Assembly (NCBI RefSeq): GCF_000685865.1
Contig: NZ_JMKS01000005.1
Coordinates: forward strand, 62,001 to 126,000
DNA: 64,000 nucleotides
DNA from: Exiguobacterium antarcticum DSM 14480
GTDB lineage: Bacteria; Bacillota; Bacilli; Exiguobacteriales; Exiguobacteriaceae
Direction of reading: 5' to 3'
Below, piece after piece: positions 20,596 to 52,289 of this stretch. Below the pieces are notes generated by a model. It was not told the origin of the DNA. It was given only the letters and a program-made list of their open reading frames with translations, and searched no databases. Each line of letters begins with the position of its first letter. Positions within the stretch are counted from its first letter, which is position 1. The position numbers were made by a program, and so were the translations under genes.

Positions 20596-21246
20596 TTATT
20601 TAATGTTGAGTCCAACCTTTTCATAAAAGGCAGGCTTTAATTCGTTGTACCGGACCGTCAGTTGATTAAACGTCTTTAAAGCATCTGTCGCTTGACGAGA
20701 AGTTTGGTTTAAATCCGCTGTTGCTTCGTCAATCTTAACGAAATTCGGTTTTTCGGTCAAGTAGGAGAGCACTTTCTTTTCAGAGGTGATCACCGCTTCG
20801 TAACGTTTTAAAAAGGTGTTAAAGGCTTTTTTTCTCTGATCAAAAATGTCCAGTAACGCCGTACCATCTTTTTTTGCATCAGCCGGTAAGGTCGCTATTT
20901 CATCCGTCAATTCCTGTCGATCGAACTCTTCGAACGCACGGCTCCGGATTTTTTGTTCTTGTTTTAATAGATCAACCCGCTTTTGGTTCAAATCCGTCAG
21001 TTCATCACGTTCATTTTGAGCACGTTTGATGTCGTCGGCTCCAGCCTCTAGCACCGCCTGATACGTGTTGACAGAAACTTCATCTTGCCGTGTTCGTTGC
21101 TCTGCGATGGTTTCCGCTTTTTGTTCGAGTTGCGCCTGCTTCTCTAACTGGTCGTAAATCGAGGAAGCCGGATCAGTCGAACACGCACTGAGTAGAAGGA
21201 TGCTGAGACCGGTCAAACTACTAGCTAAAAACATCCGTTTTTTCAT
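20596..21246 (-). CDS. YkyA family cell-wall-associated lipoprotein
   Basis: A 216-residue lipoprotein (lipobox LLLSACST, cysteine about residue 22) matching the putative cell-wall binding YkyA family. After the lipobox it is almost all helical and charged, with long coiled-coil stretches (QLEKQAQLEQKAETIAEQ; RDELTDLNQKRVDLLKQEQK). Function is not known; other members are surface proteins of Bacilli. The start codon is odd: it lies directly beside the right end of a dead IscB element and no Shine-Dalgarno sequence is visible (CCACCCTATAAACA-ATG). Its original promoter and ribosome site seem to have been displaced. Confidence 0.87.
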   Translation of the reverse strand: MKKRMFLASSLTGLSILLLSACSTDPASSIYDQLEKQAQLEQKAETIAEQRTRQDEVSVNTYQAVLEAGADDIKRAQNERDELTDLNQKRVDLLKQEQKIRSRAFEEFDRQELTDEIATLPADAKKDGTALLDIFDQRKKAFNTFLKRYEAVITSEKKVLSYLTEKPNFVKIDEATADLNQTSRQATDALKTFNQLTVRYNELKPAFYEKVGLNIK

Positions 21247-21279
21247 TGTTTATAGGGTGGCGGAGACCCGTGACTTCAG

Positions 21280-21693
21280 TCATGGGAGGAGCCGACCCTC
21301 ACCTCCTTCTGGTTGGATGTCGACGAGCCATGTCGTCGCTCTCTCAAGTAGTATCAGTTTCTTATGCGAAGCGGATTTATGAACGCGGACTCCTTGTAAC
21401 GTCCTAAGGTCGAAATAGCCGGTCTTACGTCTTCCGAACACGAAACACGTCTGTCCCTCGTACTGCACCTTGTCGAACAGTTGATAGCCGTGGACAAGGC
21501 GCTCCGCTTTGTTCGCCTTTCTTTTACCAGCCTTTCCGATGGTCATCTGATGCAGTTGACGGTTGTTCGCGCGTACCTGTCGGAAAAGATACGACACCTT
21601 CGGTGCTTCTGCTAGTCGATTCCCGCTGATGCAACGTGCGTCGACAGCATGACGCTTCTCCAGTCCATTTTCGATGTGTGTGTTCTTCGTCAA
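21280..21693 (-). pseudogene. iscB: IscB RNA-guided nuclease, C-terminal fragment
   Basis: 137 residues that resemble the end of IscB proteins: TKNTHIENGLEKRHAVDARC carries the RuvC-III histidine/aspartate motif (HAVDA), followed by ISGNRLA, the basic RANNRQLHQMTIGKAGKRK segment, VHGYQLFDKV and FVFGRRKTGYFDLRTL, a C-terminal domain order known in this family. IscB proteins are normally about 400-500 aa, so around 300 N-terminal residues, including RuvC-I and HNH, are gone. A stop codon (TAA) lies eight codons upstream and the first codon is TTG without a ribosome site. It cannot be an active nuclease. Confidence 0.8.
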
Positions 21694-21699
21694 TGTTGG

Positions 21700-21872
21700 G
21701 AAGGCGTTTTACATCTGCAACACCGTCCCGACCCAACAGGACTTTTAATCACAGACGACAGGGCAATCGGCTAGAACAGGTACCGAGAGGTGTCATGACC
21801 CAACCAACGGAGTTCGTAAGAACCGAGACTAGTCCATTTCAGGCTTTCACAAGCCTGTCACTTTAGTGATGG
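21700..21872 (-). ncRNA. Probable omega-RNA (HEARO-type) remnant of the IscB element
   Basis: IscB genes are preceded by a structured guide RNA that spans the left end. The corresponding stretch here keeps folding elements: a TCACTAAAGTGA end hairpin, CAGGCTT-GTGA-AAGCCTG (21840-21858) and several GC-rich pairs up to the truncated reading frame. Position and orientation fit; identity as omega-RNA is inferred from the neighbouring IscB fragment. The guide would come from DNA just outside TTAC, the 3' end of the deacetylase gene. Confidence 0.5.
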
Positions 21873-21893
21873 GTAATTGACTATCGTAGCTCC

Positions 21894-22742
21894 TTACAGA
21901 TTTGGGTATTTCGAAAAATTATAGGGAATATGGAAGTCTTCATCATAAATCGAGAATTGATAACCTTTTTTCTTGAGACCTGCAATGATTGCCGGTAATG
22001 CGCGCAACGTTTGCGGTTGTTCGTGTAACAGGATGATTTCGACGGGATCCTCCGCCCGATCAATGACTGTTTTAGCAACTTCCTTGGCACTGTCCTTGTA
22101 GTACCAATCCATCGAATCGATTGACCAGTCCCACACCCGAAGATTTGCTCGTTCGATTTCTTTCGCAATCGATTTGGTAATGCTGGGAGACGAACCGTAC
22201 GGCGGACGTGTCAGAAGTGGGGCATGACCCGTCAGTTGCTTGATTTGTTTTTGAACACGCAGCATTTCGGGAACATATTGCTTCTTTTCATATAACGTAT
22301 CGTAGTCGTGCGTTTCACTGTGTAATCCGATGTAGTGACCGTCATTTGACATCGTACGCACCACATTCGCTTGCTGATTGATGTTAGGACCCATCAAAAA
22401 GAACGTTGCTTTGGCGTTTTGTTCCTTTAATGACTGTAAAATATCTGACGTCAATGCTGTCGGACCATCTTCAAAAGTCAGGTAAGCCACTTTTTTAGTA
22501 ATGCCGTTCCATTTTTCGACACGTGCTTTGTCGAGATTTGCAACCGGGACTTCACTTAGTGACTGTACGGACTTTACGGCAGTTTGCTGTTGGTTCGAAC
22601 TGAGGTATTGATAAATGACATAACCGCCGATCGGAAGCAACAGAAGGGCTAGAAAAATAAAAAGCTTAGCGACATACTTTCGTTTTGGTTTTCGGTGTCT
22701 TGGACCAAGTCCAATCGGGTTACCTGAGTTGTATGAGTCCAT
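21894..22742 (-). CDS. Membrane-anchored polysaccharide deacetylase
   Basis: A 282-residue carbohydrate esterase family 4 protein. A short basic N-terminus (RHRKPKRKY) and one membrane helix (about residues 25-47) are followed by an extracellular NodB domain (about 90-275) with TFEDGPTALT, HSETHDYDT (metal histidines), TRPPYGSSPS and a final LLHEQPQT motif. The usual first metal-site pair Asp-Asp reads Glu-Asp (FEDG), as in several PdaA-like peptidoglycan deacetylases. Start chosen at the ATG with AAAGGAG upstream; the ATG 16 codons earlier lacks one. An IscB relic begins 18 bp after its stop. Confidence 0.9.
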   Translation of the reverse strand: MDSYNSGNPIGLGPRHRKPKRKYVAKLFIFLALLLLPIGGYVIYQYLSSNQQQTAVKSVQSLSEVPVANLDKARVEKWNGITKKVAYLTFEDGPTALTSDILQSLKEQNAKATFFLMGPNINQQANVVRTMSNDGHYIGLHSETHDYDTLYEKKQYVPEMLRVQKQIKQLTGHAPLLTRPPYGSSPSITKSIAKEIERANLRVWDWSIDSMDWYYKDSAKEVAKTVIDRAEDPVEIILLHEQPQTLRALPAIIAGLKKKGYQFSIYDEDFHIPYNFSKYPNL

Positions 22743-24068: not shown

Positions 24069-24155
24069 CATCATGATTCTGTAGCTCAGCTGGGAGAGCG
24101 CTACCTTGACAGGGTAGAGGTCGCTGGTTCGAGCCCAGTCAGAATCATACCAAAA
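24069..24155 (+). repeat. 87-bp direct repeat, copy 1 (tRNA-Val cassette)
   Basis: Identical to 34369-34455 in the same orientation, exactly 10,300 bp apart, and includes the whole tRNA. Flanks differ, but the terminators remain similar. Confidence 0.95.
24075..24147 (+). tRNA. tRNA-Val (anticodon GAC)
   Basis: Full cloverleaf: acceptor GATTCTG/CAGAATC, D stem GCTC/GAGC, anticodon stem CTACC/GGTAG with loop TTGACAG (anticodon GAC, valine GUC/GUU), T arm GCTGG-TTCGAGC-CCAGT. CCA is not encoded. It is a single-gene unit with its own promoter and terminator and is identical to the copy at 34375. Confidence 0.96.
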
Positions 24156-34368: not shown

Positions 34369-34455
34369 CATCATGATTCTGTAGCTCAGCTGGGAGAGCG
34401 CTACCTTGACAGGGTAGAGGTCGCTGGTTCGAGCCCAGTCAGAATCATACCAAAA
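34369..34455 (+). repeat. 87-bp direct repeat, copy 2 (tRNA-Val cassette)
   Basis: Perfect copy of 24069-24155 in the same orientation. Confidence 0.95.
34375..34447 (+). tRNA. tRNA-Val (anticodon GAC), second copy
   Basis: Base-for-base identical to the tRNA at 24075-24147, without encoded CCA, and again a single-gene unit. Together the two raise the dosage of the GUC/GUU decoder. Confidence 0.96.
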
Positions 34456-52113: not shown

Positions 52114-52151
52114 TAACGCTATGCTACAGTAAAAAGGAATTAAATTACGAG

Positions 52152-52244
52152 CAACTAGGGGAGCTGGAGGAGTCCGGCTGAGAGGAAAACTATTCTGTTT
52201 TCGACCCTGTCACCTGAACTGGATAATACCAGCGTAGGAAAGTT
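52152..52244 (+). ncRNA. TPP riboswitch (THI element)
   Basis: The thi-box core is clear: GGGGAGC..., GGCTGAGAGG at about 52177-52186, CCCTGTCACCTGAACTGGAT then AATACCAGCGTAGGAAAG. Thiamine pyrophosphate binding should fold the downstream terminator and shut off thiD-thiM-thiE. Confidence 0.96.
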
Positions 52245-52289
52245 GAGATCGAAGACATGAGATATAAAACCTAGATGAGGGTTTTTCAT

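What the first reader, a model, noticed from the sequence alone, without database searches (positions are those of the whole stretch)
21257..21872. Collapsed IscB element that kept its guide-RNA end and the nuclease C-terminus but lost the catalytic core
Seen: IS200/IS605-type left end (TTAC then hairpin), omega-RNA-like sequence, then only the last 137 codons of IscB starting near the RuvC-III motif, then the right-end hairpin. Known: IscB is an RNA-guided nuclease ancestral to Cas9, with its omega-RNA encoded upstream. Inference: an internal deletion made a MITE-like unit that could be moved in trans by a TnpA and could still donate an omega-RNA to a full IscB elsewhere in the genome. Persisting RNA-only copies would be a reservoir of alternative guides.
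Basis: partly seen in the sequence, partly recalled or inferred. Interest (0 to 1): 0.72.

Follow-up and report, generated by a model that had tools for sequence, protein, structure and literature searches.

The report
Guide-RNA transposon that lost its nuclease
In an Exiguobacterium chromosome, one of three copies of a jumping gene for the RNA-guided cutting enzyme IscB (a relative of Cas9's ancestor) lost most of the enzyme by one deletion but kept an intact guide RNA and both ends, and those ends also seem to carry a ready-made ribosome landing site for whatever gene they land in front of.

Summary
Window 21247-21881 (minus strand, 635 bp) is an IscB (ISC/HEARO) element of Exiguobacterium; a sister species has the exact empty site. 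Its omega-RNA is a full-length HEARO match (114 bits; cut-off 83). iscB lost ~281 codons (PLMP, RuvC-I/II, HNH) by one deletion between two copies of ACGAAGAACA. The genome holds one intact iscB (418 aa) and one C-terminally frameshifted copy, with 91-93% identical omega-RNAs, so a trans-supplied guide is plausible; standalone omega-RNAs are known. Unsupported: 'MITE-like' (single copy, no amplified family in 399 Bacilli genomes), mobilisation by the resident TnpA (different cleavage sites), and 'reservoir of alternative guides' (the guide's only exact matches are its own site and the sister species' empty allele). Likely role, inferred: retention of its own insertion using an intact IscB in trans.

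Beyond the finding: the element sits between a gene's Shine-Dalgarno and its ATGA start. Its 3' end carries a Shine-Dalgarno plus a covarying stem just before the start codon. This recurs across distant IscB elements (26/33; 4.7 expected), and solo copies form the addB leader in six species. It suggests a portable ribosome-binding end, for which I found no prior description.

The parts
21247..21881 (-). whole collapsed IscB element (635 bp; one-base ambiguity at the edge)
   Evidence: empty site in sister species G018, flanks 95% and 91% identical; length
21676..21881 (-). omega-RNA (HEARO) scaffold
   Evidence: RF02033, 114.3 bits, full length
21882..21898 (-). predicted guide (TGTAAGGAGCTACGATA), taken from the 5' flank; overlaps the end of the deacetylase gene
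   Evidence: position next to the omega-RNA 5' end (known IscB layout); exact matches only at own site and at the empty site of G018
21681..21690 (-). deletion junction: single remaining copy of the direct repeat ACGAAGAACA
   Evidence: alignment with the full copies, which have two copies of the repeat
21280..21693 (-). iscB remnant, 137 codons (RuvC-III to C-terminus), open frame from a TTG
21300..21308 (-). Shine-Dalgarno-like AAGGAGGTG carried by the element, within the last iscB codons
   Evidence: sequence; conserved across IscB elements
21254..21299 (-). terminal stem (arms 21291-21299 and 21254-21261) enclosing the transposon-end hairpin
   Evidence: fold; covariation with related ends
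21241..21246 (-). ATGAAA: insertion target and predicted TAM, also the start codon of the downstream lipoprotein gene (20596-21246)
   Evidence: empty site; ORF list; fits NWRRNA
21890..21895 (-). native Shine-Dalgarno AAGGAG of the lipoprotein gene, displaced 635 bp by the insertion
   Evidence: comparison with the empty site

Best explanation
A full-length IscB element inserted between the Shine-Dalgarno and the ATGA start codon of a lipoprotein gene (shown: empty site in a sister species). It lost ~870 bp by recombination or slippage between two ACGAAGAACA repeats, one at the 3' edge of the omega-RNA and one inside iscB (shown by alignment; that the deletion followed the insertion is inferred). 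What is left is a non-autonomous element. Its omega-RNA is probably transcribed by read-through from the upstream deacetylase gene and bound by the intact IscB made at L002 (inferred). Because the guide comes from the 5' flank and the right flank ATGAAA fits a known IscB TAM, the complex would cut only the empty allele of this same site, which would favour retention or homing of the insertion with the nuclease supplied in trans (inferred). The 3' end supplies a Shine-Dalgarno and stem just before the downstream ATG, so the downstream gene can probably still be translated (inferred from conservation).
For: HEARO match; two-block alignment joined at the repeat; empty site; one intact and one frameshifted iscB with 91-93% identical omega-RNAs; exact guide match to the G018 empty allele and nowhere else; TAM fit; standalone omega-RNAs reported to work with IscB (PMC9581776); retention and gene-drive role shown for the sister nuclease TnpB (PMC11870625); direct-repeat ORF loss known in IStrons (PMC4227781).
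Against: No expression data. A few private changes in the omega-RNA, one breaking a closing-stem pair, and its score is the lowest of the genus copies. The deletion is too young to show that anything is being kept. No TnpA with matching ends was found in the genome, so excision, which would create the empty sites to be cut, may be rare.
Confidence: 0.55

Rival explanations
1. Plain decay: a recently broken IscB element with no remaining function, whose omega-RNA will erode like the rest.
For: Single copy; young deletion; internally deleted and ORF-less HEARO copies recur without amplification in other Bacilli.
Against: The deletion spares exactly the RNA, and an intact IscB is present. Neither excludes chance.
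Confidence: 0.4
2. MITE-like unit that is moved in trans and acts as a store of guides.
For: Both ends are present.
Against: No second copy in 19 genomes; no amplified families in 399 Bacilli genomes; resident TnpA has other cleavage sites; guide matches only its own site.
Confidence: 0.04
3. On the end module: the conserved GGAGG is part of the single-stranded DNA end recognised by the transposase, not a ribosome-binding site.
For: It lies next to the transposon-end hairpin; it is kept even where RTGA does not start a gene; a CCTCC inside the hairpin could pair with it.
Against: It is kept at addB in six species after the rest of the element is gone; after the stem is looped out, the spacing to ATG is that of a normal Shine-Dalgarno; the best match near the iscB stop is within background in eight cyanobacterial and one Deinococcus element (weak, confounded by phylogeny).
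Confidence: 0.3

Closest known systems
ISC / HEARO elements (IscB with omega-RNA, IS200/IS605 superfamily)
   Same: omega-RNA family, iscB remnant, ends and RTGA insertion context
   Different: lacks the first ~281 codons of iscB, so no nuclease of its own
Standalone omega-RNAs of IscB (Altae-Tran 2021, cited in PMC9581776)
   Same: guide RNA locus without a functional nuclease gene, with IscB elsewhere in the genome
   Different: trans function not tested here; here the collapse is traced to one deletion between repeats, with an iscB remnant still present
ORF-less BcISt1 IStrons of Bacillus cereus (PMC4227781)
   Same: loss of the nuclease ORF between short direct repeats in an IS605/IS607-type element, leaving the RNA part
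   Different: the RNA kept there is a group I intron; ORF loss was shown experimentally and depended on ORF B
MITEs
   Same: internally deleted element with both ends
   Different: single copy, no sign of amplification
Insertion sequences with outward-reading promoters (general knowledge)
   Same: a mobile element end that supports expression of the neighbouring gene
   Different: here a ribosome-binding module at the start codon rather than a promoter (inferred from sequence)

Membership tests
ISC/IscB transposon (HEARO element) | HEARO/omega-RNA upstream of iscB | tested here: met
   RF02033, 114.3 bits over the full model
ISC/IscB transposon (HEARO element) | iscB with PLMP, split RuvC and HNH | tested here: not met
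   only residues ~282-418 remain; so it is a deletion derivative, not a complete member
ISC/IscB transposon (HEARO element) | precise insertion with both ends and an RTGA-flanked site | tested here: met
   empty site in G018; same ends in L001, L002, L004, L006
Standalone trans-acting omega-RNA | intact IscB elsewhere in the same genome with a matching omega-RNA | tested here: met
   L002 418 aa, omega-RNA 91% identical
Standalone trans-acting omega-RNA | the RNA is made and guides IscB cleavage in trans | not testable with these tools
   needs RNA sequencing and biochemistry
MITE | several copies of the same deleted form | tested here: not met
   one copy in 19 genus genomes
MITE | mobilised by a resident transposase with matching ends | tested here: not met
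   resident TnpA elements have TTAC/TCAA ends, the IscB element does not
Portable ribosome-binding end (proposed here) | Shine-Dalgarno next to the terminal stem in IscB elements, more often than expected | tested here: met
   26 of 33 against 4.7 expected; mean -9.3 against -2.8 kcal/mol; elements are related, so p-values are indicative
Portable ribosome-binding end (proposed here) | covarying stem between Shine-Dalgarno and start codon | tested here: met
   95.8% paired, 8 two-sided changes, 0/500 shuffles; slid controls at most 45%; related sequences can exceed shuffles without structure
Portable ribosome-binding end (proposed here) | the end drives translation of the downstream gene | not testable with these tools
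   needs reporter assays

The most novel reading that the evidence does not exclude
IscB transposons end in a portable ribosome-binding module: a Shine-Dalgarno, then a terminal stem that loops out the transposon-end hairpin, then ~5-12 nt, then the RTGA target. Insertion between a gene's own Shine-Dalgarno and its ATGA/GTGA start codon therefore rebuilds a working translation start, and such ends can be domesticated after the rest of the transposon is lost, as at addB in Exiguobacterium. The collapsed window element is one instance.
Probability: 0.5. Interest if true: 0.75.

Novelty: new member of a known kind. Interest (0 to 1): 0.48.

Why it matters
The collapsed copy is a clean natural case for asking whether an omega-RNA without its own nuclease is kept by cutting empty sites with a nuclease supplied in trans: a defined insertion, an empty sister allele with an exact guide match, and an intact IscB in the same cell. 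The translation-compatible end, if confirmed, would help explain how IscB elements survive insertion in front of genes: they would replace the ribosome-binding site they displace, much as IStrons splice themselves out. It would also show a route by which transposon ends become host leaders.

Tried and rejected
Searching the 137-aa fragment alone in Pfam, NCBIfam and PDB gave nothing; its identity came from alignment with the full copies of the genome. The two equal-scoring HEARO copies in G326 (L104/L105) looked like amplification but are a 99.9% identical 3.8-kb segment present twice, so they say nothing about mobility. A first stem finder without the inner-hairpin requirement gave many spurious stems and was replaced. 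Literature searches for a Shine-Dalgarno in IS605/IscB ends found nothing relevant. The founding papers (Weinberg 2009, Altae-Tran 2021) are not held, so the statement that HEARO elements insert 5' of ATGA/GTGA was recalled from memory and then seen in the data here. I considered that the remnant protein might be functional: the frame is open, but dN/dS is uninformative at this age. Shared insertion sites between species (L001/L004, L002/L006) fit vertical inheritance: elements 98% and 91% identical, flanks 92-93% and 84%.

Full report
WHAT IS THERE. On the minus strand the window holds an element at 21247-21881. Its first 206 nt are a full-length HEARO (omega-)RNA: RF02033, 114.3 bits against a cut-off of 83, E 7.8e-23. 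The rest is the last ~137 codons of iscB and a hairpin end. The own genome has two other HEARO loci, each followed by iscB. L002 encodes an intact 418-aa protein with PLMP, RuvC and HNH parts (387 bits against NCBIfam IscB; the closest solved structures are IscBs such as OgeuIscB). L001 has a frameshift that removes the last ~24 residues.

THE DELETION. Against L001 and L002 the window copy aligns in two blocks, 93/91% over 201 nt and 92/88% over ~450 nt. The blocks meet at ACGAAGAACA, which occurs twice in the full copies: at the 3' edge of the omega-RNA and within iscB before RuvC-III. About 870 bp, residues 1-281, are gone; the RNA is spared. The remaining coding part has dN/dS 0.20-0.30 against the full copies, the same as among most full copies, so the deletion is recent. 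The omega-RNA is nearly identical to that of G007 in its middle part and has a few private changes, one breaking a closing-stem pair.

INSERTION AND GUIDE. In G018 the same place is empty...aaatctgtAAGGAGctacgata|ATGAAAAAACGG, with flanks 95% identical on the deacetylase side and 91% on the lipoprotein-gene side. The element thus sits between the Shine-Dalgarno and the start codon of the lipoprotein gene 20596-21246. If the guide is taken from the 5' flank, as in known IscB systems, it is ...TGTAAGGAGCTACGATA next to ATGAAA, which fits the OgeuIscB TAM NWRRNA (PMC11900391). Its only exact matches in 19 genomes are its own site and the G018 empty site; one place in each of two other genomes has two mismatches. 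The predicted target is therefore the element's own empty allele. That fits the retention or gene-drive role described for the sister nuclease TnpB (PMC11870625) rather than a store of alternative guides.

MITE OR SINGLETON. No second copy of this deleted form exists in 19 genomes. In 399 Bacilli genomes (30 with HEARO) other internally deleted copies (L103, L110, L111) and ORF-less or stub HEARO copies (L104, L107, L112, L114, L120-L123) occur, but not as amplified families; tblastn with one query could miss very divergent iscB next to the weakest of these. Collapse is recurrent and its products stay single. The only TnpA in the genome (two copies, each with a tnpB) belongs to elements flanked by TTAC and ending TCAA, unlike the IscB ends. 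Standalone omega-RNAs that work with IscB are already reported (PMC9581776). ORF loss between short direct repeats is reported for IStrons, where it needed full-length ORF B (PMC4227781).

BEYOND THE FINDING: THE 3' END. In the window copy the last codons of the iscB remnant contain AAGGAGGTG (21300-21308). It is followed by a terminal stem that closes over the transposon-end hairpin, 7 nt, and the ATG. The predicted fold leaves the Shine-Dalgarno nearly free (the energy is unremarkable, z -1.4). A finder that ignores the Shine-Dalgarno and asks for terminal stem, inner-hairpin motif and RTGA returned 33 elements, at least two of them probably mis-hits (L117, L150). 26 have a Shine-Dalgarno core in the 18 nt at the 5' side of the stem (4.7 expected from windows in the same elements), with mean anti-Shine-Dalgarno energy -9.3 against -2.8 kcal/mol, Wilcoxon p 1.6e-6. 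The elements are related, so p-values are indicative only. The same layout is visible by eye in Acidithiobacillus, Cetobacterium, Pseudoalteromonas and Natranaerobius plasmid copies. Among 58 ends curated by eye, about half have RTGA starting an ORF of 90 codons or more, and their displaced 5' flank has a stronger native Shine-Dalgarno (-6.5 against -3.4, p 4e-4). The RTGA target is thus often, not always, a start codon.

THE addB LEADER. A 50-nt match to the element end lies directly before addB. G000 and G012, and in diverged form G004, G008, G013 and G014, have Shine-Dalgarno, stem and ATGA there; the other 13 species have an ordinary leader. Across these six leaders and six IscB ends the stem pairs in 95.8% of cells, with 8 two-sided changes (0 of 500 shuffles; slid controls at most 45% paired). 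The addB leader of this genome folds with z -2.6. This is best read as a solo transposon end kept as a ribosome-binding leader; that the more diverged G004-type leaders derive from the same kind of end is inferred.

LIMITS. There are no expression or biochemical data; two key papers are not held; the Shine-Dalgarno evidence is conservation only; the contrast with Shine-Dalgarno-poor lineages is small and confounded by phylogeny; the element ends were curated by eye using RTGA. A first attempt to hand in this report failed its schema check and nothing was filed then.

Noticed in passing
L041 (G000 C5 ~309102-309163), before addB; also L042, L044-L047: Solo IscB-type 3' end (Shine-Dalgarno plus covarying stem) directly before the ATGA start of addB in six Exiguobacterium species; 13 others have an ordinary leader.
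   Followed up: partly
L001 (G000 C5 ~560614-562133): The second full iscB of the genome has a one-base deletion near its end that replaces about the last 24 residues.
   Followed up: partly
window 24074-24148 and 34374-34448: Two tRNA-Val(GAC) genes 10.3 kb apart within a 119-bp, 95% identical direct repeat, as at the edges of an integrated element; the DNA between them was not examined.
   Followed up: no
window 52147-52257: TPP riboswitch (RF00059, 70 bits, plus strand).
   Followed up: no
L108 (G116 C3 ~481055-484384): HEARO RNA separated from its iscB by ~1.8 kb, possibly a nested insertion.
   Followed up: no
L148 (Quinella sp.): Two HEARO RNAs about 550 bp apart upstream of one iscB.
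   Followed up: no
L110, L111 (G205) and L103 (G270): Independent internal deletions within iscB of other Bacilli, at other positions than in the window copy.
   Followed up: partly
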